A DNA stretch of 64,000 nucleotides from Bolinopsis microptera (lineage: Eukaryota; Ctenophora; Tentaculata; Lobata; Bolinopsidae): NCBI RefSeq assembly GCF_026151205.1, contig NC_087081.1:1049386-1113385 (forward strand). The letters run 5' to 3'. Below the pieces are notes generated by a model. It was not told where the DNA came from and ran no database searches. It saw only the letters and a program-made list of their open reading frames with translations. Every line of letters starts with the position of its first letter. Position 1 is the first letter of the stretch. Below, in pieces: positions 7,231 to 61,597 of this stretch. A program made the translations under genes and the position numbers.

Positions 7231-9500
7231 GTCATGGATTTACACAGGATTTTTACACAGGATTTACACAGGATTAAAATTAAATTATAGATCCATTATC
7301 ATGGACCGTCATAATTGTTTACAGAAGTTAATGAAAACAATCATCTTTGCTTGAAGTCAGGGCCAGGGTTATCCTTAAGTCTTAATTATGACTAATTCGC
7401 GAGGTTCTCACCAAATTGATAGTAAAATTGTTTAAGTTTCGTGCATTTGAATTACGCTGACGCATATCTTCGGTGAAGCTATTTCGCTCTTCGGAGCAGC
7501 GAAGGAAATAAGTGCACACACAGTTGACAGCATAGGAGCGCCTTTCTTGAAATTGAATATACTGTGGGGTGTTTGGTTGAATATCAAGTGAGCGGTGGCA
7601 GTGAATATGGAGGCTCTGGTGATTTTGAGGAATTACAGTTGAGTAAGGAGACAAAATTTCCATGAGATGATCTTTGAGATTTGTTTCATTGATATTGCTG
7701 GAGTCGGTGATTTCATTGCTTATTTCAATGATTGGCATTTGAGAAAGATTTTTGACTAATTTCGACCTCTGTTTTGAATACAAGTCACATATGTAAAGAG
7801 CATGCGACTCGTCTTCGATGGTCTCAACGCCCATACTTGATTGGCACCAACCACATAGTCTTTGCTCACGGGGTGTGTTGGAGTATCTCCCTCTTTCAAT
7901 ATGGAGATCATGGGCGCTGATTCTAAGTTTTGTGGTGCTGTAACGACGAGAAAAGCCTTTGCATAAGTATAAGTAGGGCTCTCGGTTGAAGGTGTGTTTG
8001 ATTGAGTGATAGAATGAGAGTTTAGAAGAAGTAGATTTTTGATATTGCCAACATTTTTTGAATTGATTGGTTAGAGCTTCGATGATTTTAGGAATTCTAT
8101 ACTTTTTGCTGCATAGTGGTTTGATGGATTGACTAAAATTTGACTGATTTATGAGGGAGTCTTTAAATAATTTGTGATCACTTACAGGGTTGGGCGCGGC
8201 TTTGTTAGCTGCATTTGTATTGAGAATTCGGTGCGCAGTTACGTGATCTAGTTTGTAAATTTCATCTAGTTCAAGGAGTGGTTTTATGTATCGATACCAA
8301 GGTAAGTTTAGTGATTTTTGTTCTTTTACGGCTGCAGTGACAAACGAATTCGACTTTGATTTTGTATTTAGCCTTTTGAAGTAATTTAACGTTAAGCGAA
8401 TTGATTGATAAATCAGAGGAATTCTTCCTGTTTCTCCCCAAACACCGACATTTGATGCTTTACGATGGACTCCCAATGCCCATTTTAGGAATGAAATATG
8501 CACTCTTTCTTGCAGAGAGGCGCTGATTTTTTTAAGTAAGTAAGTAGCGGTTGCTTCTGTCGAGTTAATCGTTTTGCAAAGAGATTTATTGATCGTACTA
8601 GTGGGTGTCCATATCGGAGCACCATATAATAAAATGGGCTTGATGAGAGAGTCGAACAGTGTAAGGAGTGCTTTAAAAGATAACTTTGAACGCATGACAA
8701 CCCTTTTCAGGCCAAAAAATGCACGCATTGCTTTGGTTTTAAGGTTTTGTTGAGCGATCTGTACTTGACCCGATTGATGAAGTTCAAATCCAAGGTAACA
8801 ATAACTGTCAACAATTTCAAGATTAGATCCGTTGAGTGTAAATTTGATGTTTTGTATGTCCTGTTTTAACGTCTTCTTACCAAAGATGACTGCTTGAGTT
8901 TTGAGTTCATTGATTTCAATGCCCCACTCCTCACAAAAATTACCGAGAATATTAAGTTGCTTTTGAGTGGTTTCCTGGTCGAGTGAAAGGAGTATAAGGT
9001 CATCCGCCCACAGTAGGTGGCTTACAGTCATATTTGAAAGTACGGGGCAATTTGGAAAATCTAGGAGGCAGGACATATCACTGAGAAAAACTTTAAAAAG
9101 ATCAGGTGAGAGTGGGTGACCTTGTTCTGTACCTTTACGTATCTGAAAGCGTTTACTGAGGTGACCAGATAATTTTATGTAAGCGTACGAGTTTGAGTAC
9201 ATATTTTTGAGGACATTGTAGAAGTTCCCAGTTATGCCATTTTTTGCGAGTTTGAGGAAAAGGGCTTGACGGCAGACTGAGTCGAATGCTTTTTTAAAAT
9301 CAACAAATACTGCATATACAGGTTTCCCCAAAAGTTTATATTTTGAAGCTATAGTTTTCATGGTTAGTATGTGATCGTATGTTTGAGCTTTCTTTGTGAA
9401 GCCTAGTTGGTTAGGTGGATCATGTGTCATCGATCCCAGGCCAGAGGTGAATATAGGAAAAATTGGGATAAAGCTCTGGAGAAATAAAGTGCAGTGAACA
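7231..9500 (-). mobile_element. 5'-truncated non-LTR retrotransposon (LINE), reverse-transcriptase part
   Basis: The open frame 7382-9430 (682 residues, open a little further upstream) encodes the reverse-transcriptase palm, thumb and C-terminal region. Visible RT motifs are NQLGFTKKAQTYDHI, YAVFVDFKKAFDSV (catalytic Asp in block A), GTEQGHPLSPDLFKVFLSD, then LLWADDLILLS (the catalytic A/DD block, with Trp before ADD) and KTQAVIFGK. Near the C-terminus is a Cys-His pattern CGWCQSS...DESHALYICDLY, common in LINE C-termini. No endonuclease domain or ORF1 precedes it, so the copy is 5'-truncated. The element's 3' end reads toward low coordinates, where imperfect copies of an ACACAGGATTT-type motif (7231-7275) form a short tandem tail, as in CR1/L2-like LINEs. 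The frame is intact, so insertion is fairly recent. Clade not decided. Confidence 0.85.
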
Positions 9501-10015
9501 GGAAAAATAACTAGGTGTTAAATGAGGAATCTAACCTAAATCCTGTTAGTACACTTACATTGTAATACACTATACATATACATACTGTAAACTATGTTCA
9601 TTTAAGGTCAAGTTTGCTAGAATGGTAGAACAGAAAAATGTAATTAACCTGATTTGTTGTACTCTGGTGAGTTTTTACTATTTTGCCATAACAAGAAACA
9701 AAATCTATGGAGATTCTATTCAGAAACAGACTTTACCTAAAATCAACAGAATTTTTAAAATAAATCAGAAATATACGATGTTTAATTTTGATATTGAGTT
9801 AATAAATTGTTTCAAACAGTATACTGTACACATAATGTCACAATGACCTAATATAAAAATAACCCTTCAAAAACTCAATATTTAGAAAATCACCCTTGGC
9901 CTTGCGGCTCCAAGTTCAAATCTAAACTGTCTGGCTCTTACTAATTCGCTCGCCCAAAAATTTCACGTGACTTTGGTTTTTATGGTTTTGCAGCCGTACA
10001 AAACAGTTTTACATA
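9501..10015. other. AT-rich spacer, no gene seen
   Basis: No exon or repeat structure recognised. Confidence 0.4.
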
Positions 10016-41000: not shown

Positions 41001-44000
41001 TAAATTTCTAGCTTTCTGCCAGAAAATAAATTTTCGGTTTCTATAGGGGGTAATTAGGTAATAACTACAGTACAGCTGTACCCACATTCACAAGCATGCA
41101 AGCTCACCTGGTCCAATGAGCGGGAAACGGAGAACAAGGTCTGGTGACGTCATAGTCACGTCACCTCAGGCTCATAATCACGTGACCTCAGACCCAATCA
41201 ATTGGTTTCTGGTCTGGTCAGCCCCCTGTCAACCGATCTTGAGGTGACGTGCGACACCTCGTTGACCCAATCAATGTCTGGAAGGCTGCAAATTTTCACA
41301 TGCCAAATTCACAAGATTCTTAAAGAGTTGTGCGAGATGACGATACATAGAGGCCGCAGAATTATGAGGACTACCGGATCCCGTTGGAACATAAGCGATC
41401 CATGATATCACAACAGGCCCTACATAGTTACACAACTAGTTACCATAGTTACACTACTAGTTACCATAGTTACACAACAGGCCCTAGCGGCTAGCAGAGG
41501 CTGCAGATGAAAATGAATCTCATCGTGTTAATGTTGCTGTACAAGAGGTTGAAGATATGTAATCTTCACCTTACAGAATCCAAAACTCTCTTATGTCTCA
41601 CTTATTTGACACCACTTGTCGGCTTCGCTCGATTGAAATTGAACGAGTAGTCCTTTTCGTTCCCTTTGGAGGCACCACTAGAAAGACTCCTTTGCGAGTT
41701 CAAAGACTCTGGCTACGTGACTCGGTGGAGGCTCTTTCTATATGAAAGCTTCAGTAAGAATAGTTGTATGCCTATAATTTCATTACCTGGCTACTAAATA
41801 CACTATATCAGTATATCTGTCAGATGAGTTCAGTTCGTATTCAACCACTTTGAATTCCTTTTAAAACTTATAATGGACCATTAACAGATCGAAGTGTAGC
41901 ACAGTTTACCTACCACACTTTAAGTTATATCTTGATGCAAGCTAGTAAGGTATCTTGATGCACGCAAACTACAGTGAAAATCTTTTTTGGACTGCCTTAT
42001 TTAACTTGAACAGTGACAAATTTTAATTTAATTTAAATTTATCACAGATCATAGTAACAGACTGAAGTGTAGCACAGTTTACCTACCACACTTTAAGTTA
42101 TATCTTGATGCAAGCTAGTAAGGTATCTTGATGCACGCAAACTACAGTGAAATTCTTTTTTGGACTACCTTATTTAACTTGAACAGTGACAAATTTTAAT
42201 TTAATTTCAATTTATCACAGATCATAGTAACAGACTGAAGTGTAGCACAGTTTACCTACCACACTTTAAGTTATATCTTGATGCAAGCTAGTAAGGTATC
42301 TTGATGCACGCAAACTACAGTGAAAATCTTTTTTGGACTGCCTTATTTAACTTGAACAGTGACAAATTTTAATTTAATTTAAATTTATTACAGATCATAG
42401 TAACAGACTGAAGTGTAGCACAGTTTACCTACCACACTTTAAGTTATATCTTGATGCAAGCTAGTAAGGTATCTTGATGCACGCAAACTACAGTGAAAAT
42501 CTTTTTTGGACTGCCTTATTTAACTTGAACAGTGACAAATTTTAATTTAATTTAAATTTATCACAGATCATAGTAACAGACTGAAGTGTAGTACAGTTTA
42601 ACTACACTTAAACTACGAGACTACAGATATATCCTGATACAAGTAAGCAGAAAAGGAGGAATGTTGAGACCAAATATTTTGAGCACAGCTGTCCTTATAT
42701 AGCTGCTTCACTTCCAGTTCACTAACATTCAGTTCTCTTTAAGTTGAAGTTCTAATTTGTTTAAGACTCTGGGACGATATTTCAACGAATCGTTATTTTT
42801 TTCATGGCTGTCGCCCAGACTGTATCAATTTAAGGCACCCGCTCCCTTCTTTGATTTACGATAATGATCGTGAACAAAATTAGAGTCTGGTATCCAACAA
42901 ATTTTAGATCTCTATTAACATGGTTTTTTAGACACCTAAATATACCGATTTCCGCCTTCCGGGTTTTTTCCAGCACTAAATTTTAGCAGCTGGTTGCTTT
43001 TTTCCTTTTTATCAATATAATAGAATAGACTATTTTGATCTACCTTTTGAGTTTTGAACGACTTCTGATACGACTGATTTCTCCTTAGAACACGGTGGTA
43101 TTTGCTTTATCAGGGCTTTAACTTTCAGTTCTGTTCCTTTTACCAGGTTTCAGTCTCACGTAACTCCGCATTTAATTTTTTAAATCTTATTTTTATCTGA
43201 TATCGATTGATATTTGTAAAAAACGTTGATTTATTTAAGTATTGTTATATTCGTATCCTATTCTTTTAACCTTAAAAAACACCAGACCCGCAGCAATGAC
43301 GAAAGTATTATGTTTTCTACTAGTGCTAGGACTGATCGCTCTGACTCAGTGTCAGCCTCCAGGATTAGGAAGACGATCAGCTGAACCCCAGCCTCCAGGA
43401 TTAGGAAGACGATCAGCTGAACCCCAGCCTCCAGGATTAGGAAGACGATCAGCTGAACCCCAGCCTCCAGGATTAGGAAGACGATCAGCTGAACCCCAGC
43501 CTCCAGGATTAGGAAGACGATCAGCTGAACCCCAGCCTCCAGGATTAGGAAGACGATCAGCTGAACCCCAGCCTCCAGGATTAGGAAGACGATCAGCTGA
43601 ACCCCAGCCTCCAGGATTAGGAAGACGATCAGCTGAACCCCAGCCTCCAGGATTAGGAAGACGATCAGCTGAAACCCCAGCCTCCAGGATTAGGAAGACG
43701 ATCAGCTGAACCCCAGCCTCCAGGATTAGGAAGACGATCAGCTGAACCCCAGCCTCCAGGATTAGGAAGACGATCAGCTGAACCCCAGCCTCCAGGATTA
43801 GGAAGACGATCAGCTGAACCCCAGCCTCCAGGATTAGGAAGACGATCAGCTGAACCCCAGCCTCCAGGATTAGGAAGACGATCAGCTGAACCTCAGCCTC
43901 CAGGATTAGGAAGACGATCAGCTGAACCCCAGCCTCCAGGATTAGGAAGACGATCAGCTGAACCCCAGCCTCCAGGATTAGGAAGACGATCAGCTGAACC

Positions 44001-47000
44001 CCAGCCTCCAGGATTAGGAAGACGATCAGCTGAACCCCAGCCTCCAGGATTAGGAAGACGATCAGCTGAACCCCAGCCTCCAGGATTAGGAAGACGATCA
44101 GCTGAACCCCAGCCTCCAGGATTAGGAAGACGATCAGCTGAACCCCAGCAGAACGGTGAACCATTTGTTGATTTTGGAAAACGATCAGCTGAACCCCAGC
44201 AGAACGGTGAACCATTTGTTGATTTTGGAAAACGATCAGCTGAACCCCAGCAGAACGGTGAACCATTTGTTGATTTTGGAAAACGATCAGCTGAACCCCA
44301 GCAGAACGGTGAACCATTTGTTGATTTTGGAAAACGATCAGCTGAACCCCAGCAGAACGGTGAACCATTTGTTGATTTTGGAAAACGATCAGCTGAACCC
44401 CAGCAGAACGGTGAACCATTTGTTGATTTTGGAAAACGATCAGCTGAACCCCAGCAGAACGGTGAACCATTTGTTGATTTTGGAAAACGATCAGCTGAAC
44501 CCCAGCAGAACGGTGAACCATTTGTTGATTTTGGAAAACGATCAGCTGAACCCCAGCAGAACGGTGAACCATTTGTTGATTTTGGAAAACGATCAGCTGA
44601 ACCCCAGCAGAACGGTGAACCATTTGTTGATTTTGGAAAACGATCAGCTGAACCCCAGCAGAACGGTGAACCATTTGTTGATTTTGGAAAACGATCAGCT
44701 GAACCCCAGCAGAACGGTGAACCATTTGTTGATTTTGGAAAACGATCAGCTGAACCCCAGCAGAACGGTGAACCATTTGTTGATTTTGGAAAACGATCAG
44801 CTGAACCCCAGCAGAACGGTGAACCATTTGTTGATTTTGGAAAACGATCAGCTGAACCCCAGCAGAACGGTGAACCATTTGTTGATTTTGGAAAACGATC
44901 AGCTGAACCCCAGCAGAACGGTGAACCATTTGTTGATTTTGGAAAACGATCAGCTGAACCCCAGCAGAACGGTGAACCATTTGTTGATTTTGGAAAACGA
45001 TCAGCTGAACCCCAGCAGAACGGTGAACCATTTGTTGATTTTGGAAAACGATCAGCTGAACCCCAGCAGAACGGTGAACCATTTGTTGATTTTGGAAAAC
45101 GATCAGCTGAACCCCAGCAGAACGGTGAACCATTTGTTGATTTTGGAAAACGATCAGCTGAACCCCAGCAGAACGGTGAACCATTTGTTGATTTTGGAAA
45201 ACGATCAGCTGAACCCCAGCAGAACGGTGAACCATTTGTTGATTTTGGAAAACGATCAGCTGAACCCCAGCAGAACGGTGAACCATTTGTTGATTTTGGA
45301 AAACGATCAGCTGAACCCCAGCAGAACGGTGAACCATTTGTTGATTTTGGAAAACGATCAGCTGAACCCCAGCAGAACGGTGAACCATTTGTTGATTTTG
45401 GAAAACGATCAGCTGAACCCCAGCAGAACGGTGAACCATTTGTTGATTTTGGAAAACGATCAGCTGAACCCCAGCAGAACGGTGAACCATTTGTTGATTT
45501 TGGAAAACGATCAGCTGAACCCCAGCAGAACGGTGAACCATTTGTTGATTTTGGAAAACGATCAGCTGAACCCCAGCAGAACGGTGAACCATTTGTTGAT
45601 TTTGGAAAACGATCAGCTGAACCCCAGCAGAACGGTGAACCATTTGTTGATTTTGGAAAACGATCAGCTGAACCCCAGCAGAACGGTGAACCATTTGTTG
45701 ATTTTGGAAAACGATAAGCTGAACCCCAGCAGAACGGTGAAACATTTGTTGATTTTGGAAAACGATCTGCTGAACCCCAGCAGAACGGTGAACCATTTGT
45801 TGATTTTGGAAAACGATCAGCTGAACCCCAGCAGAACGGTGAACCATTTGTTGATTTTGGAAAACGATCAGCTGAACCCCAGCAGAACGGTGAACCATTT
45901 GTTGATTTTGGAAAACGATCAGCTGAACCCCAGCAGAACGGTGAACCATTTGTTGATTTTGGAAAACGATCAGCTGAACCCCAGCAGAACGGTGAACCAT
46001 TTGTTGATTTTGGAAAACGATCAGCTGAACCCCAGCAGAACGGTGAACCATTTGTTGATTTTGGAAAACGATCAGCTGAACCCCAGCAGAACGGTGAACC
46101 ATTTGTTGATTTTGGAAAACGATCAGCTGAACCCCAGCAGAACGATGAACCATTTGTTGATTTTGGAAAACGATCAGCTGAACCCCAGCAGAACGGTGAA
46201 CCATTTGTTGATTTTGGAAAACGATCAGCTGAACCCCAGCAGAACGGTGAACCATTTGTTGATTTTGGAAAACGATCAGCTGAACCCCAGCAGAACGGTG
46301 AACCATTTGTTGATTTTGGAAAACGATCAGCTGAACCCCAGCAGAACGGTGAACCATTTGTTGATTTTGGAAAACGATCAGCTGAACCCCAGCAGAACGG
46401 TGAACCATTTGTTGATTTTGGAAAACGATCAGCTGAACCCCAGCAGAACGGTGAACCATTTGTTGATTTTGGAAAACGATAAGCTGAACCCCAGCAGAAC
46501 GGTGAAACATTTGTTGATTTTGGAAAACGATCTGCTGAACCCCAGCAGAACGGTGAAACATTTGTTGATTTTGGAAAACGATAAGCCGAACCCCAGAAGA
46601 ACCTTATGTGAAGGTAATAATGAGCCTAACTTGTATGAAACTGCACTGGGTAACGCAGGGGTAAGGTGTGAGACGATCACGAGTGAATTTCGTTGGATGA
46701 CCATAGGTTTAAAAAGTTGCATTGAATATTGAGTTTTATTTCTCTTAGATGTGCAAAATATTGCAATTTACTTTATATCAAAAATGAAACATACTCCTAT
46801 CTATGTACCTCTTATCGAGGTTCATATATAAGATAATAGTTTAGAAACTATCATCTTATCTATGTACCTCGATAAGAGTACAGTGTAGCACAGTTTAACT
46901 ACGGGACTACTATATCTTGAGACAAGTAAGTAAACAAGGAGGAATGTTGAAACTAAATCCGGTAAATTCAGCCATTTCTTACAGCTCCTCCGACCTCAAG

Positions 47001-50000
47001 TTCACTAACAGTAACATTCAGTTCTCTTTAATAGTCTCTGGGACTCTCGCCTAGACTATACCCATTGAAGGCATCTGCTCATTCTTTAATTTAAGGTTAT
47101 TATCGTTAAAAAAACTACAGTTTGGTATTTTTATAAATACTGAGGCCATATTTCACTGCTTCATTGTTTTATCAGCAATCATGTATTTTTTTTGGCCATT
47201 GCATGGTTCATAGACATGGAGCAATAATGTTTAATATTTTACCAAAACCCAAAAATAGGCATAGTTAATGGTTACTCAAATTATAAGATACAAATACAAT
47301 GTAATATCAACTAAATATGCTAGGTAAAAGGTAAGGTTGGTAACACGACTCCTGTCTGACAGCGACATCTGTCCGACAGCGACATCTGTCCGACAGCGAC
47401 ATTTGTCCGACTCAGGGTACCAGAAAAAAACGACATCTGTCAGAAATTGTGATCTGATTTCAATACGACACATTTCCAATTAGAGAAATGATCTGAACTG
47501 TTACTTGCTAAGTTGTAAACGTAACATTTCCAATTTGAGATTATATGATCTGAGCCATAGTTTACTACCATAGCTTATTTTCATTTGATGTCGATAAATT
47601 GGACAATAATTTAAATGGTATACGTATAAATTAATTCAATAAAATACAATCAATCCCATTTATTGAATCTTTGTTGCCGAGTACAGCTGCCTTCGGGTAG
47701 TTCTTCTTAATCTATTACAATTGTAAATGAATGGGAAAAGCGAGCGACCGATTTCATTCTCGGTATCATTTTGCATTTGAGAACGGTCAATCAAATTCTT
47801 TTGTTTGGGAAAGAGAGACACTGGCAGTGGTCCACTCTACCCATGATTATGGGTTTTGGTCAAATATCATATCTTTTTGATTATAATGTCAGGGTACTTT
47901 TCAAAGTCGAAATTTATAACTTTATTAATAAGGTTAAGGAGATAATTTCAACGCGATTTTGAAATTTTACCTTTGAAAACATTTCCTTGTGTTTAGGTAA
48001 GCATATATGTCGATCAATGACTGAATATGCCACATTATACTCATTCAAGTCGGCATTAAGTTCATATATATAATGCCATTTAACTGTCATGGAAAAGCAG
48101 AATCTAATCGAAATCACGATTGAGCAAAATTCTCACCTTTCGCACGTGCAAACTTTGAGCGGACGTTGCGTGCGCATCCAATATTGAATCACCTTAAGGG
48201 GGCCAGGGGGGGGGGGGTCTTCATCAAAATTCTCTCGAAATCGAGTTTATAGTTGTTTCTGATAGAAGGGAGTGATATCTATCAGCTGCTTTTAGTCCCA
48301 TGGAAAAATATTGCTCCTAGCCGAAATTATCACCAGTCAAAGGTCTGCGCTTATGTGTAATTGTATTGCGCGAGCAATTTTCAATCGCGCGTTCTGAAAA
48401 TCGAGTCTAAAAATCTATCTTCTCCTACATTTTTTGAGCAATCACCCTCAAACTTTCAGGATATGTTCTTAGGATCAGTTAGAAGAGAACGTTCAAGCCA
48501 GAATTTTGAGATAGGCCTTTAAAGATTTTTAATTCGATTTTGAAAATCTTGGACCTCGTTTTTTTACGATTTTTTGAGGTCCAAGATTTTCAAAATCGAA
48601 TTAAAAATCTTTAAAGGCCTATCTCAAAATTCTGGCTTGAACATTCTCTTCTAACTGATCCTAAGAACATATCCTGAAAGTTTGAGGGTGATTGCTCAAA
48701 AAATGTAGGAGAAGATAGATTTTTAGACTCGATTTTCAGAACGCGCGATTGAAAATTGCTCGCGCAATACAATTACACATAAGCGCTGACCTTTGACTGG
48801 TGATAATTTCGGCTAGGAGCAATATTTTTCCATGGGACCAAAAGCAGCTGATAGATATTACTCCCTTCTATCAGAAACAACTATAAACTCGATTTCGAGA
48901 GAATTTTGATGAAGACCCCCCCCCCCCCCCCCCCCCCGGCCCCCTTAAATATTTGCATATTCGTTATTTATGTTTAGTTTGATAAGCATGCAGAGTTTCA
49001 AAGTATTTCAAGAAGAACTGTACTCACAACGGCACTCCAAAGTTGACTGAAAATTAGTACAGGGAAATCCGTCTGAAAAAATCGATTTGCCGACACACAA
49101 AGCTTACAAAGGATTTTTGACGTTTTTGAGTCCTAATAGGTGTCCTTTATGGCTGACCAACTTTTCCAAACTTTTCCACGTGTCTTAAGGCCACTTTTTG
49201 CCACTTTACCACTTTTTACCACCTTTCTTGTTTGTCAAATATCTTTAGTTGTGAACATCGTAGAAAGTTGCAGATTAAACGAGGGTGTTCATATTATCAA
49301 GAAGAAAAACTTTTGTTGAGACAATTTTTTCCTCAGATAATCAATTAATTGGATAATTATCAATTAGCTAATTAGCAAAAATTAAAATTTTTTTATTGGC
49401 TCAAAATGATTGGAATAGCTTAAAACACGGAGAAAAGTAGTTTTTAGAAAAACTTCGAAAATTTTTCACTTACATTTTTTTTTCGAGACATGGAAAAAAA
49501 ATTTCGAATTTTCGAAATTTTTTTTTCGCCAAAAGTTATCAAATTGCATGAAACGTGGAGAAAAATGCTATTAAAAAAACTTCGTGAATTTTTGTTTTCA
49601 AGAATACTAAAATCACTTATATTTGTAGTTGGAGTTCAGTAAATCTCGGCAGATTTTAGTAATCAGGAATTATTAAATCAAAATAGATAAAAGGACTGAA
49701 ACTGAAAAACGTTAACCACAGGATATTAGAGTTTTATAATTAATTACAGTATATCCTTATTGATTTTTACAGAAACTGCACCAAAGGCACATTTAAGATC
49801 GAACCGATAGCCTGCTGTACTACGATAATATGTAATAAATAAAACATCTCTGAGTCTGTACCGTCAATCGTGCTAATCTGAACCAGCCTACCTGGATTAC
49901 CATCTACCTCTTCTTTTCATCAATAATTAGACCGAGTTGTGCAAGAAATGTGATTTATCATAGCTCATATTGCATTTAGTGGGTGATGTAAGTACTTATC

Positions 50001-53000: not shown

Positions 53001-55742
53001 GTGACGTCATGACACGTAGTGTGACGTCATGACACGTGGTGTGACGTCATGACACGTAGTGTGACGTCATGACACGTGGTGTGACGTCATGACACGTGGT
53101 GTGACGTCATGACACGTAGTGTGACGTCATGACACGTGGTGTGACGTCATGACACGTAGTGTGACGTCATGACACGTGGTGTGACGTCATGACACGTAGT
53201 GTGACGTCATGACACGTGGTGTGACGTCATGACACGTGGTGTGACGTCACAGCTTAAGATAGATAGAAAACCTGGATCTTGACAGGTGACTTGTTCGTTA
53301 TCCAACCAGAATTCAGCAATACAGCCCTCGCAGTAATTGCTGATACATTCAGCGTTAGGGGAACTGGGACAACTTGCTGACTCACAAGGGTCACCGTTAC
53401 AATCGTATGATTCTTCGCAATCGCCATCACTCTTGGATACAAAACCTATAAACATGTAATATACGTCACGTGGTGTGACTTCGTTGGATATGTCACGTGG
53501 TAGGACGTCATGTCACGTGGTGTGATTTCGTTGGATATGTCACGTGGTAGGACGTCATGTCACGTGGTGTGACGTCATGACACGTGGTGTGACGTCATGA
53601 CACGTGGTGTGACGTCATGACACGTGGTGTGACGTCATGACACGTGGTGTGACGTCATGACACGTAGTGTGACGTCATGACACGTAGTGTGACGTCATGA
53701 CACGTGGTGTGACGTCATGACACGTGGTGTGACGTCATGACACGTAGTGTGACGTCATGACACGTAGTGTGACGTCATGACACGTGGTGTGACGTCATGA
53801 CACGTAGTGTGACGTCATGACACGTAGTGTGACGTCATGACACGTGGTGTGACGTCATGACACGTAGTGTGACGTCATGACACGTAGTGTGACGTCATGA
53901 CACGTGGTGTGACGTCATGACACGTGGTGTGACGTCATGACACGTGGTGTGACGTCATGACACGTGGTGTGACGTCATGACACGTGGTGTGACGTCATGA
54001 CACGTAGTGTGACGTCATGACACGTAGTGTGACGTCATGACACGTGGTGTGACGTCATGACACGTAGTGTGACGTCATGACACGTGGTGTGACGTCATGA
54101 CACGTGGTGTGACGTCATGACACGTAGTGTGACGTCATGACACGTGGTGTGACGTCATGACACGTGGTGTGACGTCATGACACGTGGTGTGACGTCATGA
54201 CACGTAGTGTGACGTCATGACACGTGGTGTGACGTCATGACACGTGGTGTGACGTCACAGCTTAAGATAGATAGAAAACCTGGATCTTGACAGGTGACTT
54301 GCTCGTTATCCAACCAGAATTCAGCAATACAGCCCTCGCAGTAATTGCTGATACATTCAGCGTTAGGGGAACTGGGACAACTTGCTGACTCACAAGGGTC
54401 ACCGTTACAATCGTATGATTCTTCGCAATCGCCATCACTCTTGGATACAAAACCTATAAACATGTAATATACGTCACGTGGTGTGACTTCGTTGGATATG
54501 TCACGTGGTAGGACGTCATGTCACGTGGTGTGATTTCGTTGGATATGTCACTTGGTAGGACGTCATGTCACGTGGTGTGATGTGCCATGGTGTGGATGGT
54601 GTCATGGGATTTTATGTTGTATGGATGTGTCGTTTGAGTAGATGACTTAAGGTTTTTACTTAATTATTATTACAGTGCTTGAGTTTTGAAGGTAAAATGT
54701 TTATAGGTTTTTGCGGGAAATTTTGAAATAACTAAACTAGCTTTGATAAACTAGATACTATGAGTTAAATGTAACACTATTGAGCCTTTCACATTATTCT
54801 ATTTCATTAATGCTTTGCAAGATTACACGATTTGAAGTCAAAGCCAGTTTACCTTATGCTGATTTTGGGTGGCAATTCACACTCACACACATTCTCACAC
54901 ACTCAATCTATCACAGCACACATGCCACAGGTCATACCGCAAGTGGGGACGCGGTGACGTCTCACATAAAACTCAGCGTTACAGCAACCATCATCAACAC
55001 ACACGGCCGAGGGGTGGGAAGGGCAAACTGCCGTAGCACACGCATAGTTTTTACACTTGCGGTGCTGGCAGTCGGACCTTTTTCTGGAGTAACGCACATC
55101 TATTACTTTTAGTACGCCTGATTTGGATTTGCTGATGTGTTATTTGTAATGCTGTTTTGAGATTGAGTTGAAGTGTGAATGAAGTTTGAAAGAAAGCAAA
55201 TTTAACAGTTCAAAAGTTATAAAATTTGATTTATTGTGCACATTCTGGAAGCTGTCACATTTTCAACAAAAGTATGTGTTATATGTCAACAAAAGTAACT
55301 ATACGTCAACAGAATAAAATAGCGTAACCTTTGAACATTTGCAGTTCTTTTTTAGAGGAGTCCACTATTGACAGGTCTGCTGAGCCAGTACATTGAAAGT
55401 AGAAAACACGCTTCAGACCTCCTCCAGAAGCAAATATTATCTGAAATAATTTGTTTAATGGTAATTTGAATTTCAATTTAAAACTAAAATATCATATAAA
55501 CTAAATTATGTAGTTCGATAAAAATTAGGTAAAGTAAATTCTAACTGCTTATCTAAACATAATTATTTTAAGTGTAAATGTGTATGATTGATCAACAATT
55601 AATTCACAACAGTATCTAGGCTTACTTGTTGTGTTTCATAAGGCTTGATAGTTCCTTGATAAGGTACTCCCTGCTGAATGATATTTCCGTCTGATGTCAA
55701 GAAGATCACCAACCAGGTTATCAAGACCAAGCAACCACCCAT
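26647..55742 (-). CDS. Large gene for a cell-surface or secreted protein: Cys-rich modules plus fibronectin type III-like domain
   Basis: Ten minus-strand exons: 55626-55742, 55329-55440, 54938-55099, 54280-54453, 53272-53445, 38885-38964, 38571-38684, 37776-37877, 37473-37590 and 26647-26831. Phases agree at all nine junctions, giving 1338 nt and 445 residues. Start [19 protein letters not shown] is a signal peptide, or an anchor if the frame extends upstream (acceptor at 55833). Next come a beta-rich stretch ([28 protein letters not shown]), three Cys-rich modules (first [21 protein letters not shown], then two identical copies with [19 protein letters not shown]), and a second beta-rich stretch. 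A fibronectin III-like domain follows: [35 protein letters not shown]. The tail [20 protein letters not shown] ends at the stop, like a GPI-anchor signal. The order loosely recalls NDNF-type proteins, unproven. Three introns are giant and filled with repeats. Confidence 0.75.
26841..28202. repeat. 12-bp minisatellite GTGGTGTGGTTA in several blocks with copies of the last exon's 5' end
   Basis: Blocks at about 26841-27020, 27085-27102, 27827-28002 and 28062-28202. Between the blocks stand copies of a segment of about 60 bp (27021-27080, 28003-28060 and 28203-28261) that matches the first part of the last exon (26776-26837) including its CCTGTGCAG acceptor on the minus strand. The open plus-strand frames in this region are repeat artefacts. 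Confidence 0.9.
27103..27826. mobile_element. hAT-like non-autonomous transposon inside the 12-bp minisatellite
   Basis: Terminal inverted repeats CTAAGATGGCAAGTACGTAC / GTACGTACTTGCCATCTTAG, about 25 bp long, with further subterminal AAGTACGTA/GGTACGTACC motifs. Flanked by GGTGTGGT on both sides (27095-27102 and 27827-27834), a duplication of 8 bp relative to the minisatellite phase. 724 bp, with no transposase recognised. Confidence 0.8.
28296..28394. mobile_element. Short inverted-repeat element (about 99 bp)
   Basis: The ends AGGCGTGGGGTCAG and CTGACCCCACGCCT are perfect inverted copies around an AT-rich core with palindromic TCGACCGATCGATATT. Probably a MITE; the target duplication is not clear. 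Confidence 0.6.
28483..31783. repeat. 30-32-bp satellite, unit TGAATGTTTGAAGCTACACC + CCTCTCTCCCC (left part)
   Basis: About 105 copies with variants (GCAGCTACAC, GAAACTACAC, CTCCTCTC) and C-run length differences. It lies in the intron between the exons at 37473 and 26831 of the large minus-strand gene. Pyrimidine-rich on the plus strand. The array resumes at 35690, so it was split by a 3.9-kb insertion. Confidence 0.95.
32735..34800. repeat. 2-kb purine-only GA/GGA-rich tract
   Basis: The plus strand is almost only A and G (GAGGAGGAGGACTGAGG-type units), interrupted by one LINE fragment at 33789-34140. Long frames through it (Ser/Pro-rich on minus, Glu/Arg-rich on plus) are compositional. 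Confidence 0.9.
33789..34140 (-). pseudogene. Degenerate LINE reverse-transcriptase C-terminus
   Basis: The minus strand encodes [13 protein letters not shown], then [20 protein letters not shown] and [20 protein letters not shown]. This is the typical end of cnidarian LINE reverse transcriptases (RER-Y-IIY-WKI ... FN-LP). The conserved stretch [16 protein letters not shown] is only reached by changing frame near 34030-34075, so it is broken. Flanked on both sides by the purine tract. Confidence 0.7.
35690..37448. repeat. 30-32-bp satellite (right part)
   Basis: Continuation of the satellite at 28483-31783. This part is noisier, with more indels (GAATTTTGAAG, CTAACACC, GGTTTGAAG), and runs to within about 25 bp of the exon end at 37473. 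Confidence 0.93.
37888..37946. repeat. Three copies of GTGTGACGTCATCAGATCG
   Basis: A 19-bp unit containing the CRE palindrome TGACGTCA, just upstream of the exon at 37776-37877. Confidence 0.8.
38104..38268. repeat. About 80-bp direct duplication
   Basis: CTACCCTCCCACTTTAAAGT through GCTACGCGACAAACT occurs twice in tandem; the first copy has an extra ATT. Confidence 0.85.
38996..39496. repeat. 20-bp CRE/E-box satellite, form GTGTGACGTCATGTCACGTG
   Basis: Two blocks (38996-39222 and 39403-39495) of units that each carry TGACGTCA (CRE/ATF palindrome) and CACGTG (E-box), separated by about 180 bp of unrelated AT-rich DNA. Located just upstream of the 38885-38964 exon in the large gene. Confidence 0.9.
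39500..40260. other. Intronic AT-rich sequence
   Basis: No exon or mobile-element signature recognised on either strand. Confidence 0.4.
40262..40385. repeat. Repeat A (inverted copy at 52.1 kb)
   Basis: Contains GGATACTGGCGGGGAGGTGA and two tandem units with GAGCACATGTTCAGGAGGCT / GGTGATAATTG. The same sequence is found reversed at about 52100-52232. Confidence 0.85.
40865..41080. repeat. Repeat B (direct copy at 51.9 kb)
   Basis: Shares AATCGATTT(C/T)TCGTGCAATT, TTTTAGGT and CATCAAAAT(A/G)AGTT with 51895-52090 in the same orientation, at moderate divergence. Confidence 0.75.
41108..41140 (-). CDS. Candidate 33-nt microexon of the large gene
   Basis: Flanked by CACCAG acceptor and CCAG|GTGAGC donor on the minus strand. 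It is phase 1-1 and would insert [11 protein letters not shown] between the second Cys-rich module copy and the next exon. The good donor and fitting phase favour it; its small size leaves doubt. Confidence 0.4.
41888..42600. repeat. 174-bp tandem repeat (four copies plus a partial) upstream of the peptide gene
   Basis: Each unit runs from GAAGTGTAGCACAGTTTACC through TATCTTGATGCAAGCTAGTA to AATTTATCACAGATCATAG. Copies differ by only a few bases. The last partial copy merges into the promoter region of the peptide gene. Confidence 0.92.
42690..42760 (+). promoter_or_regulatory. Likely core promoter of the neuropeptide gene
   Basis: A TATA element CCTTATATAGCTGC at about 42693-42706 is followed some 25-35 bp later by TTCACTAACATTCAGTTC, a plausible start region, about 560 nt before the ATG. 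The surrounding 42580-42900 is repeated downstream of the gene at 46875-47130, where the TATA box is lost. Inference only. Confidence 0.45.
43296..45717 (+). CDS. Neuropeptide precursor with two families of amidated peptides
   Basis: The ATG at 43296 (GCAGCAATGA) starts [19 protein letters not shown], a clear signal peptide. It is followed at once by 22 copies of the 12-residue unit [12 protein letters not shown] (36 bp each, 43353-44145), then copies of the 17-residue unit [17 protein letters not shown] (51 bp each, from 44146). Gly before Arg-Arg or Lys-Arg is the amidation and dibasic cleavage signal, and N-terminal Gln can become pyroglutamate. Predicted products are pyroGlu-PPGL-amide and a peptide ending EPFVDF-amide. 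Cnidarian precursors are also cleaved at acidic and X-Pro sites, which would remove SAEP. In-frame TAA at 45715-45717 directly after GKR of the 31st FVDF unit ends the protein. In the ninth PPGL unit one extra A (about 43671-43674) shifts the frame and would stop the protein at 43709: a real allele or an assembly error. I do not know this peptide pair from any named family. Confidence 0.82.
45718..46584 (+). repeat. Seventeen further FVDF units beyond the stop codon
   Basis: The 51-bp array continues in frame after the stop at 45715 with 17 more units. Further in-frame TAA codons occur at 46480-46482 and 46582-46584, each replacing the Ser codon after GKR. Units 32, 47 and 48 carry GETFVDF instead of GEPFVDF, units 32 and 47 carry TCT for the Ser codon, and one unit near 46145 carries ND for NG. 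Confidence 0.9.
46875..47130. repeat. Second copy of the peptide-gene upstream region
   Basis: AGTGTAGCACAGTTTAACTA, CAAGTAAGTAAACAAGGAGGAATG, GTTCACTAACAGTAACATTC and TTCAGTTCTCTTTAA match 42588-42760. GCCTAGACTATACCCATTGA and GGTTATTATCGTTAAAAAAA match 42820-42880. No coding copy follows it. Confidence 0.8.
47345..47412. repeat. 18-bp direct repeat, three copies
   Basis: Unit GACAGCGACATCTGTCC repeated, with a fourth decayed relative at 47430-47450. Confidence 0.75.
47670..47725 (+). mobile_element. LINE-like 3' end motif
   Basis: TGCCGAGTACAGCTGCCTTC followed by GGGTAGTTCTTCTTAAT resembles the sequence at 60159-60200 (GCCGAGTAATGCCTTCGGGT then AGTGCTCCTCAATCAATCAA). Such a shared tail suggests 3' ends of related non-LTR elements. 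Confidence 0.45.
48194..48948. mobile_element. 755-bp near-perfect palindromic foldback element at TTAA
   Basis: The ends are TTAAGGGGGCC(A)G12 and C22GGCCCCCTTAA. The sequence from TCTTCATCAAAATTCTCTCG inward is repeated in reverse almost without mismatch to a small loop (ACGATTTTTTG) at about 48570. TTAA on both sides fits piggyBac-type insertion. No coding capacity. Confidence 0.85.
49054..51794. repeat. 2.7-kb inverted repeat with about 1.1-kb arms
   Basis: The left arm (49054-50171) starts TTAGTACAGGGAAATCCGTC. The right arm (50580-51794) ends with its reverse complement. The arms are nearly identical over long stretches and diverge toward the centre. About 410 bp lies between them. Each arm contains a TTAAGGCCACTTTTTGCCAC motif. 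CAGTAAAACCTCTCTATACC after TA at 50636, only in the right arm, resembles a pogo/Tigger-type transposon end. Confidence 0.85.
51880..52235. repeat. Repeats B and A, second copies
   Basis: B (51895-52090) is direct to 40865-41080. A (52100-52232; CAGCCTCCTGAACAT(A/G)TGCTCGCCC twice) is inverted to 40262-40385. They are adjacent here. Confidence 0.8.
52434..54575. repeat. CRE/E-box satellite arrays with an embedded exon, tandemly duplicated with 1008-bp period
   Basis: 20-bp units GTGTGACGTCATGACACGTG and the variant GACACGTAGT, about 40 units per block (52434-53247 and 53572-54255). Each block is followed by the same Cys-rich exon and the same irregular tail (GACTTCGTTGGATATGTCAC). The order of G and A variants is nearly the same in both blocks, so array plus exon was copied as one piece. 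Confidence 0.95.
53272..53445 (-). CDS. Duplicated Cys-rich exon, copy 2 of the large gene
   Basis: A phase 1-1 exon of 174 nt with acceptor TTTATAG and donor CCAG|GTTTTC. It encodes a 58-residue module with eight Cys. It lies exactly 1008 bp from its twin at 54280-54453 and differs by one synonymous base (GAA/GAG in NEQVTC). Being symmetric in phase, it can be added or skipped without breaking the frame. Confidence 0.8.
54576..54937. other. Intron between Cys-rich exons
   Basis: AT-rich with CACTCACACACATT runs near the splice donor of the 54938-55099 exon. No other feature. Confidence 0.5.
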
Positions 55743-55843: not shown

Positions 55844-56830
55844 TTGGCTACGTGCAGACCAGGGAAGGAGCCGGAATCGGATTCGGTGGAGATGATAAAG
55901 TCTCTGAAAGAAGAGGAGCTCCTCCAGACTCTGTACGATAAGAGAGTCCAAGGAAAGTTTCTAACCTGGGAGAACACCATGCAGCTAGACACTGGCTGGC
56001 AAAGCCTGCTGTATACCTTGAGCCCCGAGCTGACAAAGTTCCACCTAAATGCCATCCACGACGTTGCAAGTACACCTAGCAACCTCCAGCTTTGGAACTA
56101 CAGCTCCACGAACAACTGTCCCCTTTGTGGGCGTCAGCAGTGCAACCTAAAGCACATTCTAACGTGTTGCCCAGTGTCACTTAAACAAGGAAGATACAAT
56201 TGGATACATGATCAGGTGCTCAGGGTAATCGTGCAACCAATTGCAGAGAAGCTGAGGGAGATAAACAGTGCTACCCCAAAGAGAGAAGAAAAGAGAGAGT
56301 GGAGGAAGTTCGTATCCGGAAAAGGAACCTACAGGAAACCCGAAGTACGGCTTACAGAAGAACCTCATCTTCTAGAGGAGGGTAACGACTGGAAACTTGT
56401 GTTTGATAAGGACGAAAGGACAAGACAATTCCCCCAAAATATCGTCAACACAGCTCTCAGACCTGACGTGGTAATATACTCTAACACACTCAGGAAAGTC
56501 ATCCTGATAGAGCTGACCTGTGGAAACGAGGAGAACATTGAGGACCAGAGATCCCGGAAAGAGAAGAGATACGAAGAACTAATGGTGTAGATCGAGACCG
56601 CAGGCTGGGAAGGATATCTCTTTACAGTAGAAGGTGGATGTCGTGGATTCTACCACCACACATTACCCCGAATTTTCAACTTCCTTAACATCACCCGGGC
56701 AAAGAAGAAGAGGGCACTTAACACAACAGCGGTGGTGTCCCTGAAAGGTTCCTACACTATCTGGCTTAGTCGCTACAACAAGACCTGGAGTGACAACTGG
56801 CAGCTGGCCGAAAGACCCTGCCCAGTTTAA
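55844..56830 (+). pseudogene. Retrotransposon fragment: RT C-terminus with PD-(D/E)XK-like segment
   Basis: The open frame 55844-56590 (248 residues) has LTKFHLNAIHDVASTPSNLQ, a zinc-finger-like CPLCGRQQCNLKHILTCCP, and later LRPDVVIYSN, VILIELTCGNEENIE and RKEKRYEEL. This order is what I would expect of a restriction-like endonuclease fold (PD ... E-x-T ... K-x-x-K-Y). A TAG at 56588-56590 interrupts it, but the frame continues to 56830 with IETAGWEGYLFTVEGGCRGF and ends RPCPV. It lacks the RT core, so it is a 5'-truncated, broken copy. It is inserted within about 15 bp of the first recognised exon's upstream acceptor in the large minus-strand gene. Confidence 0.7.
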
Positions 56831-57270: not shown

Positions 57271-57385
57271 CTTGGAATGCTAAAAACCACCGAGGCAAAG
57301 TACAACTTGTGAAAAGTTCAAAATGAGAAACTAAAGTCATGTATTGTATAAAACATTCGACTTTTCCAGACCATAATCATGAAAG

Positions 57386-58153
57386 ATGAACTCATCGAAC
57401 ATTTTCGAACAGTCGCGAAGAACTTGTAGGAAGATTGGAATTCTTGGCGTGATCATTGATACTAAGCTAAATTGGGCCCACCACATTAGACATTTAGCCA
57501 CTAAAGTATCTAGAAATGCGGGTATTCTCTACAAACTCAAAGGCTCAGTACCTAACAAAGCACTCAAGTTGATATACAACAGCTTTGTTCAGTCTCACTT
57601 GTACTACTGCTGCACAGTTTGGGGAACAAGATCGCTAAACTCCGTTAAAAGAGTCTTCTCGGCCCAGAAAAAGGGCATTCGCGCTGCAGATAACCAATAC
57701 CACCGCTATTTTTATGACAAAGATCTGAATAGCACACCTTCACACACAAAGGAAATTTTCAATAAACTAGAAGTATTAGCTTTACCGAACGTGATAGCTA
57801 AATGTATATTATGCTTAATGCACAAAGTTTATTCTAACACTGCACCACCAAATATTATAAGAATGTTCACTGTTTCAAACTTAAACGCACCTAGAAGAGA
57901 ACCTGAGTTCTTTGCAGTACCATTTAACCGTTTATGTAATTCAGACAAGAGCATTTCTTACATTGGGCCTAAGTTATATAACCAAACAGTCAACATTATT
58001 AACAAGGACATAAAATATGTCACCACTTGCCTACAAGACAAATTCCTAAATTCATTCAAGTCTACAGTCAACAAGCATGTGCTTACTGCACAAGCACATA
58101 AACCGGATGACAAGGACTGGGACAACTCAAATTTCGTACTTTTAGAAATTTAA
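57386..58153 (+). pseudogene. LINE reverse-transcriptase C-terminal fragment
   Basis: 255-residue frame with LGVIIDTKLNWAHHI, LKLIYNSFVQSHLYYCCTVW, then KRVFSAQKKGIRA and LALPNVIAKCILCLMHKV. These are the conserved thumb and C-terminal parts of CR1/jockey-like reverse transcriptases (K-LGV-ID-L-W ... Y-S-I-S-L-YG-VW ... LQKK-IR-I). The catalytic core is missing, so it is a truncated copy. The open frame ends naturally at TAA. Confidence 0.8.
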
Positions 58154-60514: not shown

Positions 60515-60640
60515 AGTTTTAATACTTTCAACACTACTATATAACAAATAATTTGAGTAGTTCTGTGTGCGCGTTGAATTATCTCGCTGGCTTTGTAGAT
60601 TTGTATACATTGTTTGTACATTTTCTGTACAACGTGTACG

Positions 60641-61597
60641 ATGCCTCTTCCGCTACAGAATGAACATATGGATATATTAGATGATGATATGGTCGTGAAT
60701 GGCCAGTTTCTTACGGAATATGTGAATCAGATACACATGGCGACTGAAAGTATTTTCAAGGAGATTAGAAGTAAAATCGGAGTTGAACACAACGATGATG
60801 TGCGGTTTGATAAACTGAACCAGAGAAGTGTGCCTAGAGAAAGGTTATCAGAATGGTTAGAGACAGTTTGCTGTTTGCTGAACGATTTTTGTGGTCCATT
60901 GTTACGATCCGCCACAGAAACAGCTAACGACAACAGAATGTTCAGGAAAGAAAAAATAGAAGATGCGACTAAAATCATAGAACTACAAGAGAAGTTGCTC
61001 TCTAAGCAAGAAGAAGATATGGCTAAAATCAGTGATTTGCAGGAGAAGTTAGCTTTGAAGAAGGATGATGAGATTGGAACTGTGAAAAGTGCAGCTCAGA
61101 AAGAGATCAAAACCTTTTCGTCTCTTTTGAAAAACACATGCAAAAACGCCTTTGCACCAAAGAAGATCCAAGCTGCGGTGAAAAGAATTTCCCTAGAAGA
61201 AGATCGAAGTAAAAGTCTGATTATCTTTGGGCTTCCAGAGACTGAGGAGAACCTGGATGCTAAGGTATCTGGTATTTTGTTGGACCATCTCAACGAAAAA
61301 CCGAAAATTTTGAGATGTAAACGAGTTGGAAAGGACACAAGTGAACGAGTCAGACCAGTGAAATTCATTTTGTCAAGCTCAGATCAAGCTCGAACCATCT
61401 TGAGCAAGACTAAGCTACTAAGACATGTAGACGGGTTTAGTTCAGTTTACATTACTCCAGATAGATCAGCTGCAGACAGGATGGCCTACAAGAAAGTTGT
61501 CGACCAACTACTCAATAAAAGGACAGCAGAGCCTGACAAAGTTCATGTTATCAGGAACTTTAGAGTCATTAGCTCGGAGAAGGAGCCTTTAGAGTGA
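60641..61597 (+). CDS. Non-LTR retrotransposon ORF1-type (gag-like) protein
   Basis: Open frame 60614-61597; ATG at 60641 gives MPLPLQNEHMDILDDDM, and a further ATG upstream is at 60614. The protein has an acidic N-terminus, a heptad-like coiled coil (IIELQEKLLSKQEEDMAKIS, DLQEKLALKKDDE), then an RRM-like module: SLIIFGLPETEENLDAKV, ILRCKRVGK, RPVKFILSSSDQARTILSKT, SVYITPDRSAADRMAYKKV. The last two blocks are typical of ORF1 proteins of cnidarian LINEs (IFGLPE ... RVG ... RPVK ... DRS--ER---K-L). It binds nucleic acid and forms RNPs in known families. No CCHC knuckle and no downstream RT follow, so the element is incomplete or non-autonomous. The frame is intact. Confidence 0.78.
   Translation: MPLPLQNEHMDILDDDMVVNGQFLTEYVNQIHMATESIFKEIRSKIGVEHNDDVRFDKLNQRSVPRERLSEWLETVCCLLNDFCGPLLRSATETANDNRMFRKEKIEDATKIIELQEKLLSKQEEDMAKISDLQEKLALKKDDEIGTVKSAAQKEIKTFSSLLKNTCKNAFAPKKIQAAVKRISLEEDRSKSLIIFGLPETEENLDAKVSGILLDHLNEKPKILRCKRVGKDTSERVRPVKFILSSSDQARTILSKTKLLRHVDGFSSVYITPDRSAADRMAYKKVVDQLLNKRTAEPDKVHVIRNFRVISSEKEPLE

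What the first reader, a model, noticed from the sequence alone, without database searches (positions are those of the whole stretch)
43296..46584. Apparently undescribed neuropeptide precursor carrying two unrelated amidated peptides in dozens of copies
The sequence shows a signal peptide, then 22 QPPGL-G-RR units and 48 genomic FVDF-G-KR units, each with an SAEP spacer. The Gly-dibasic pattern is the established amidation and cleavage signal. PPGL-amide resembles cnidarian PPGLW-amides but lacks the Trp, and an FVDF-amide is not one I know. Both repeat types share the same GxRSAEPQ hinge ([16 protein letters not shown]), suggesting one arose by replacing the core of the other.
Basis: partly seen in the sequence, partly recalled or inferred. 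Interest (0 to 1): 0.92.

Follow-up and report, generated by a model that had tools for sequence, protein, structure and literature searches.

The report
Comb-jelly peptide precursors with swapped cores
A comb jelly genome carries a scattered family of genes that keep the same secretion leader and cutting sites but exchange the small hormone-like peptides between them; the very long, repeat-filled copy in this window appears broken as assembled.

Summary
The repeats are real: 22 units of [12 protein letters not shown] and 48 of QQNGE(P/T)[11 protein letters not shown]. Two corrections. The genome fits the ctenophore Bolinopsis microptera, not a cnidarian. As assembled the locus is not one open precursor: an extra A shifts the frame after nine PPGL units, and the FVDF frame stops at 45715, 46480 and 46582. 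The larger finding: it is one of at least 18 loci on 8 chromosomes sharing a near-invariant 19-residue signal peptide (0-2 substitutions). Of these, 14 share a long 5' region and 15 a 3' segment, yet they encode different peptides: PPGL, FVDF, AYSDY, LNLLNI, PFM, PSM and others. Two paralogues (C13, C11) differ at 9/380 upstream and 0/77 leader sites but at 40/153 mature sites plus gaps (p=8e-16): the peptide was replaced while its frame stayed. Best reading: secreted, dibasic-cleaved, often amidated peptides, laid out like conotoxin superfamilies but multi-copy and without cysteine frameworks. L012 and L013 carry both peptide types in one open frame. Expression, processing and function are untested. 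Pfam gastrin/CCK hits come only from repeat summation.

The parts
41914..42605 (+). 173-bp tandem repeat upstream (four copies matched; the array may begin earlier); pieces of it recur upstream of other family members
   Evidence: four copies, whose scan began at 42000
42606..42893 (+). dispersed repeat piece ('tail'), also present elsewhere in the genome without the leader
42901..43295 (+). 5' region (presumed promoter and 5' UTR) shared over at least 280 nt by 14 of 18 members, this one included; its last 20 nt plus the leader are identical in 9 loci
43296..43352 (+). signal peptide [19 protein letters not shown]; predicted cleavage before Gln20
   Evidence: the -3/-1 rule is recalled, no predictor was run
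43353..44145 (+). 22 units [12 protein letters not shown], 36 bp each except one of 37 bp
43672..43674 (+). A-run with one extra A that shifts the reading frame as assembled
44146..46593 (+). 48 units QQNGE(P/T)[11 protein letters not shown], 51 bp each; in-frame TAA at 45715, 46480 and 46582
46689..46811 (+). segment (presumed 3' UTR) of a downstream stretch that matches 15 of 18 members, this one included

Best explanation
The window holds one large, as-assembled broken copy of a dispersed ctenophore gene family encoding secreted precursors of short, often C-terminally amidated peptides. Proposed steps. (1) The shared signal peptide sends the precursor into the secretory pathway and is cut at C19|Q20. 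(2) A prohormone convertase cuts after KR/RR and a carboxypeptidase trims the basic residues. (3) PAM converts the exposed Gly to an amide. (4) SAEP/SADP is removed from the N-terminus, as SA then EP/DP by a dipeptidyl aminopeptidase or by the acidic-site cleavage reported in ctenophores and cnidarians. (5) N-terminal Gln cyclises. Products of the PPGL and FVDF units would be pGlu-PPGL-NH2 and [15 protein letters not shown]2, acting as neuropeptide-like signals. The family diversifies by keeping leader, hinge and flanks while peptide cores are replaced and repeat units amplified. Shown from sequence: family, conserved leader, hinge, Gly-dibasic pattern, core replacement in at least one clear pair. 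Inferred: every processing step, secretion, signalling.
For: 18 loci with 0-2 substitutions in the 19-residue signal (13 with 0, 4 with 1, 1 with 2; a further leader, L036, with five substitutions and two stops was set aside). 20 genome matches to the 77-nt 5'UTR+signal block, 9 of them 100% identical on 7 chromosomes. Residue 20 is Gln in 16 of 18 precursors, so the first unit starts with Gln right after the predicted signal cleavage and equals later units only if SAEP is trimmed. 93 RSAxx hinges in the leader-initiated frames: 77 are SAEP or SADP, and 71 of those 77 are followed by Gln. Gly precedes the dibasic site in 19 of 31 distinct units, against a mean of 5.2 and maximum of 13 in 10,000 random draws; 15 of 18 precursors have at least one Gly-dibasic site. 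The RSADPQ pattern has 9 genome matches, all in these loci, and its reversed control 2. L028 versus L030: 9/380 upstream, 0/77 leader block, 40/153 mature plus 21 gap columns, 11/200 downstream; Fisher p=8.3e-16. L012 and L013 carry both core types in one open frame. Ctenophore amidated peptides, pyroGlu and acidic cleavage are reported by mass spectrometry, and ctenophore PAM genes carry the amidation domains (PMC9525235, section 6 read, other passages seen).
Against: No transcript or peptide evidence was available. None of the ten B. mikado precursors named in the text I read matches these cores. The window copy is frame-shifted and the C5 sister (L011) is interrupted by about 1 kb after 11 PPGL-type units, so the giant arrays may be decaying. 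12 of 31 distinct units lack Gly and three of 18 precursors (L026, L034, L035) have no Gly-dibasic site at all. SAEL in L013 is not a usual dipeptidyl aminopeptidase substrate (recalled). No excess of amino-acid-changing substitutions could be shown inside single cores. Constraint on silent sites of the leader is only suggestive: 3.8% at 11 fourfold sites. Only one of six compared pairs is a clean core swap. PAM and convertase searches of this genome did not complete.
Confidence: 0.7

Rival explanations
1. Secreted repetitive structural or adhesive protein (mucus, colloblast glue); the dibasic sites are part of the repeat and are not processed.
For: Very large, almost identical arrays; Pfam matches to the arrays look like repeat or low-complexity sums.
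Against: What stays constant between loci is the processing-like hinge and dibasic site, often with Gly, while the core changes. Several members are only 62-92 aa with one to three such units.
Confidence: 0.1
2. Toxin-like or defensive secreted peptide arsenal rather than internal signalling: same leader, diversified payload, as in cone-snail venom or amphibian skin.
For: Near-invariant leader with divergent mature part over many loci, the layout described for conotoxin superfamilies (PMC4278219, passages seen).
Against: Peptides are tiny, without cysteine frameworks and repeated in one precursor, unlike typical conotoxins. No venom organ is known in ctenophores (recalled, not searched).
Confidence: 0.13
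3. Mostly non-functional: a minisatellite-prone gene family spread with repeat elements, with the window copy a pseudogene.
For: Frameshift and stops in the window copy; interrupted L011; truncated L034 of 37 aa; one degraded leader, L036; arrays without a leader in L038, L039, L046 and a second array of L024; dispersed repeats next to the genes.
Against: By my count 14 of 18 leader-bearing members have a frame with processing sites open from leader to stop (all but the window, L011, L034 and L035). The leader has a median divergence of 0.018 while upstream blocks have 0.107-0.126.
Confidence: 0.1
4. A narrower question, compatible with the best explanation: the frameshift in the window is an assembly error and the locus encodes one precursor with 22 PPGL and 31 FVDF copies.
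For: A single one-base difference in an otherwise nearly invariant 3.3-kb array.
Against: No reads to check; the C5 sister is independently disrupted.
Confidence: 0.4

Closest known systems
Ctenophore amidated neuropeptides of Bolinopsis mikado / Mnemiopsis leidyi (NPWa, FGLa, RWFa, VWYa, WTGa, NVFa/NIFa 1 and 2, TFQa, LNSa, PARa; PMC9525235)
   Same: Same phylum and, if the genome is B. microptera, same genus; amidated short peptides, pyroGlu, acidic and dibasic cleavage; FGLa shares a C-terminal GL-amide with PPGLa
   Different: None of the ten precursors named in the text I read is named for a PGL or VDF ending. Their leaders were not available to compare; three of 13 precursors are not named there
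Cnidarian GLWamides and placozoan pQPPRWamide (PMC9545775, passages seen)
   Same: pQPP start in pQPPRWa; many copies; non-basic N-terminal processing
   Different: No C-terminal Trp; different phylum; leaders and hinges were not compared
Gastrin/cholecystokinin (Pfam PF00918)
   Same: DF-amide followed by G-[KR]R-S-A-E, like the vertebrate precursor's C-terminal processing site (recalled)
   Different: No WM and no sulphated Tyr motif (recalled features); members with one FVDF unit give no match
Conotoxin gene superfamilies (PMC4278219, passages seen)
   Same: Conserved signal peptide, divergent mature peptides, many paralogues
   Different: Many copies per precursor, no cysteine frameworks, mature unit directly after the signal
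Yeast alpha-factor and bee melittin precursors (recalled)
   Same: X-Ala/X-Pro dipeptide spacers removed stepwise by a dipeptidyl aminopeptidase
   Different: Only the spacer logic is alike; no comparison was run

Membership tests
Amidated neuropeptide precursor (general kind) | N-terminal signal peptide | tested here: inconclusive
   Hydrophobic 19-residue leader with T/C at -3/-1, near-invariant in 18 loci, judged by eye and by a recalled rule; no trained predictor was run
Amidated neuropeptide precursor (general kind) | Repeated peptide-Gly-dibasic units | tested here: met
   19 of 31 distinct units against a random-draw mean of 5.2; 15 of 18 precursors
Amidated neuropeptide precursor (general kind) | Mature amidated peptide and neuronal expression | not testable with these tools
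   No transcript or peptide data held
Amidated neuropeptide precursor (general kind) | PAM and prohormone convertase in the same genome | not tested
   Family searches did not complete; PAM is reported for ctenophores in PMC9525235
Cnidarian GLWamide family | C-terminal GLW-amide | tested here: not met
   Cores end PGL, no Trp; organism is a ctenophore
Gastrin/cholecystokinin family | Profile match by a single peptide unit | tested here: not met
   Above the 22.2-bit cut-off only in repeat arrays (25.5, 37.6 and 150.7 bits) with no stretch passing alone; L023 with three units reached 17.6; three members with one FVDF unit each (L027, L030, L032) gave 0 matches, as did two core-scrambled controls
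Conotoxin-type superfamily (as a layout) | Conserved signal with divergent mature region among paralogues | tested here: met
Conotoxin-type superfamily (as a layout) | Single cysteine-rich mature peptide near the C-terminus | tested here: not met
   Multi-copy units without Cys frameworks

The most novel reading that the evidence does not exclude
A comb jelly has evolved a cassette system for peptide signals: one protected leader, hinge and pair of flanks, copied across at least eight chromosomes, into which new amidated peptide cores are repeatedly substituted, giving a rapidly renewing, conotoxin-style repertoire used for internal (neuro)peptide signalling in a lineage whose nervous system is debated.
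Probability: 0.48. Interest if true: 0.82.

Novelty: new variant of a known kind. Interest (0 to 1): 0.68.

Why it matters
A cluster analysis in PMC9525235 found no similarity between ctenophore peptide precursors and those of cnidarians or bilaterians (section 6 read), and the lack of shared markers feeds the dispute on whether ctenophore neurons arose separately. A family in which peptide cores are swapped while leader and processing sites are kept offers a concrete reason why orthology could be invisible, and yields a short list of predicted peptides (for example pQPPGLa, [12 protein letters not shown], pQENGGAYSDYa, pQQNGDLNLLNIa) that can be looked for directly in existing ctenophore mass-spectrometry data.

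Tried and rejected
Plasmid BLAST gave no match, as expected. Gastrin/CCK membership was considered after Pfam hits and rejected with single-unit members and two scrambled controls. RecR_HhH (35 bits, above its cut-off of 27) and CBL (16.1 bits, below its cut-off) hits to the PPGL array are treated as low-complexity matches because no stretch passes alone; no control was run for them. Positive selection inside cores: AYSDY versus FVDF shows 7 amino-acid-changing and 0 silent differences, but with 6.7 silent of 33 sites this is not significant (my estimate), and LNLLNI shows no excess. Retroposition is disfavoured because 14 of 18 members share 5' flanking DNA. Of six loci fetched for a match to the 5' flank, five (L042-L045, L047) showed no precursor frame; L047 runs into a frame that looks transposon-like to me (no family search run); L046 is a leader-less array of another core. 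The RSAEPQ hinge was not searched genome-wide, only RSADPQ. Literature: ten searches, of which 30 and 69 asked for the peptide or precursor strings; no listing showed them in an animal peptide context (one search listed 20 of 23 papers). Sachkova et al. 2021 is not held.
Full report
Observation. From ATG 43296 a signal peptide [19 protein letters not shown] is followed by 22 units of 36 bp ([12 protein letters not shown]) and 48 units of 51 bp (QQNGE(P/T)[11 protein letters not shown], one with D for G); 20 of 22 and 42 of 48 units equal the consensus exactly. The QPPGLGRR pattern occurs 43 times in the genome, at four loci, and the FVDFGKR pattern 141 times (111 and 30 by strand; the list was cut at 100); the reversed patterns occur 0 times. 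As assembled it is not one open precursor. The unit starting at 43641 is 37 bp long, with an extra A, so the ATG frame yields 9 PPGL units and ends after 137 residues; the shifted frame carries 13 PPGL and 31 FVDF units to TAA 45715, and 15 and 2 more FVDF units lie after it, each block ending in TAA. The 15-unit spacing between the first two stops suggests that a terminal block was duplicated with its stop codon (inference).

Organism. The genome has 264.65 Mb in 232 contigs, C1 being 26,206,493 bases and C11 20,825,282. The published Bolinopsis microptera assembly has 265 Mb, 13 chromosomes, largest 26.2 Mb and N50 20.8 Mb (table in PMC11797021, passages seen; PMC10232365, passages seen). 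Its count of 346 scaffolds differs from the 232 contigs here, and I did not compute the N50. I take it as B. microptera or a very near assembly: a ctenophore, not a cnidarian.

A family. A protein search with the leader plus three units found 39 matches at E up to 10. Reading the fetched loci gave 18 with an intact leader on C1, C2, C5, C7, C10, C11, C12 and C13: 13 identical to [19 protein letters not shown], 4 with one substitution (this window among them) and 1 with two; one more, L036, has five substitutions and two stops and was set aside. A 77-nt 5'UTR+leader query has 20 matches, 9 of them identical over all 77 nt on seven chromosomes; the two weakest are L036 and one place not fetched. 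Arrays without a leader in the fetched stretch also exist (L038, L039, L046 and a second array in L024). The mature parts differ: QPPGLG, QENGGAYSDYG, QQNGE(P/E)FVDFG, QQNGDLNLLNIG, QTPFMG, PDPSMG, LGWGLHGMGVG, QLLGQSSGKSAWG, and units without Gly such as QPPI, QPI and QTLF. L013 (C2) has 4 PPGL-type and 6 FVDF units in one open frame; L012 (C2) has 1 PPGL, 7 AYSDY and 1 FVDF. So the two-peptide precursor does not depend on the broken window copy. 15 of 18 precursors have at least one Gly-dibasic site; L026, L034 and L035 have none.

What is constant and what changes. Against their consensus the 18 leaders (57 nt) show 7 silent and 6 amino-acid-changing differences. Over all pairs the median divergence is 0.126 (-395 to -200) and 0.107 (-200 to -60), against 0.018 in the leader; the means are higher (0.276, 0.241, 0.023), presumably because L012, L013, L031 and L035 lack an alignable long 5' region in place. 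Fourfold sites of the leader diverge 3.8% (11 sites), so silent constraint is suggestive only. Among 93 dibasic-SAxx hinges in the leader-initiated frames (window and L011 counted only up to their breaks), 77 are SAEP or SADP and 71 of those 77 are followed by Gln. The RSADPQ pattern occurs 9 times genome-wide, all inside these loci, with 2 matches for the reversed control; RSAEPQ was not searched. Gly precedes the dibasic site in 19 of 31 distinct units (20 of 33 before one out-of-frame window piece and one very short piece were left out); random draws of a core residue give a mean of 5.2 and a maximum of 13 in 10,000. Units are related by descent, so this is not a formal probability. The clearest single comparison is L028 (C13) with L030 (C11): 9/380 mismatches upstream, 0/77 in the leader block, 40/153 mismatches plus 21 gap columns in the mature part, 11/200 downstream, Fisher p=8.3e-16. 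Within it LNLLNI replaced FVDF or the reverse, while hinge and flanks stayed. I compared six chosen pairs of the 153 possible. L026/L034 also diverge abruptly within the mature part (55/131), but there the difference runs on into the 3' side (111/199). L025/L025b likewise differ most on the 3' side (75/118 against 27/279 mature). L023/L030 is intermediate (26/153 mature, 27/334 upstream). L028/L029 and L030/L032 are alike throughout.

Mechanism. Residue 20, next to the predicted cleavage C19|Q20, is Gln in 16 of 18 precursors. The first unit thus begins QPPGL directly, whereas later units begin SAEP-QPPGL. If the copies are to be the same peptide, SAEP must be removed; X-Ala and X-Pro dipeptides are the recalled substrates of dipeptidyl aminopeptidases, and cleavage at acidic residues is reported for B. 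mikado and Nematostella (PMC9525235, section 6 read). Gln would then cyclise and Gly would give the amide; the same paper reports pyroGlu, amidation and ctenophore PAM genes. I could not test PAM or convertases in this genome because those searches did not complete. All processing is inference from sequence.

Spread. 14 of 18 members share at least 280 bp of contiguous 5' DNA with the window; L012 has part of it displaced upstream. Many carry pieces of a 173-bp tandem repeat and a 'tail' element that also occurs away from the genes (one search scored 40 of 79 candidates, so its list is a lower bound). A downstream stretch matches 15 of 18; L025, L025b and L026 showed no match, and in L035 it lies far downstream. 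DNA-level copying fits this better than retroposition. Whether the adjoining repeats mobilised the copies is open.

Known relatives. Of the 13 B. mikado precursors found by mass spectrometry, the ten named in the text I read do not carry PGL or VDF names, though FGLa shares a C-terminal GL; the other three are not named there and the supplements were not available. Full-text searches for PPGL/FVDF amide names and for the precursor strings gave no relevant paper. [10 protein letters not shown] resembles the vertebrate gastrin/CCK processing site (recalled), and Pfam scores the arrays above the family's cut-off, but no stretch passes alone and three members with one FVDF unit each give no match, so I do not file it there. 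The layout recalls conotoxin superfamilies (PMC4278219, passages seen), but the units are multi-copy and have no cysteine frameworks.

Verdict. A real and interesting family; the window copy has the largest arrays among the loci read here but is probably not its best working member. The strongest result is core replacement on a conserved leader and hinge, clean in one pair; the weakest link is the absence of any expression or peptide data.

Noticed in passing
L012, L013, window 44146-45714: FVDF-G-[KR]R-SAE arrays score above Pfam's gastrin/CCK cut-off by summed short matches; three single-unit members do not match. Likely convergence at the processing site.
   Followed up: yes
window 5546-6934 (-): TFIIF alpha subunit coding frame (PF05793, E 2.7e-48).
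   Followed up: partly
window 7385-9517 (-), 55844-56590 (+), 57383-58153 (+), 60599-61597 (+): Reverse transcriptase frame (PF00078) at the first place; the second has a below-cut-off zf-RVT match and the last two only weak below-cut-off matches, but they look like retrotransposon pieces to me.
   Followed up: partly
window 53207-53512 and 54215-54520 (-): Two frames with identical translations, rich in Cys, 1008 bp apart; no Pfam match.
   Followed up: partly
L046 (C10:12021400-12023300): Leader-less family array of a further core: 31 QSF-type RRGKR units spread over two frames (13 and 18) with two FVDF-like units.
   Followed up: partly
L011 between about 4338 and 5316: About 1 kb of unrelated sequence interrupts the PPGL array of the C5 sister locus; nature of the insert not determined.
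   Followed up: no
window 41914-42893 and 46880-47060: Dispersed repeat with a 173-bp tandem unit upstream of the gene and a diverged related copy (about 73% to part of it) downstream in the same orientation; may mark how the genes spread.
   Followed up: partly
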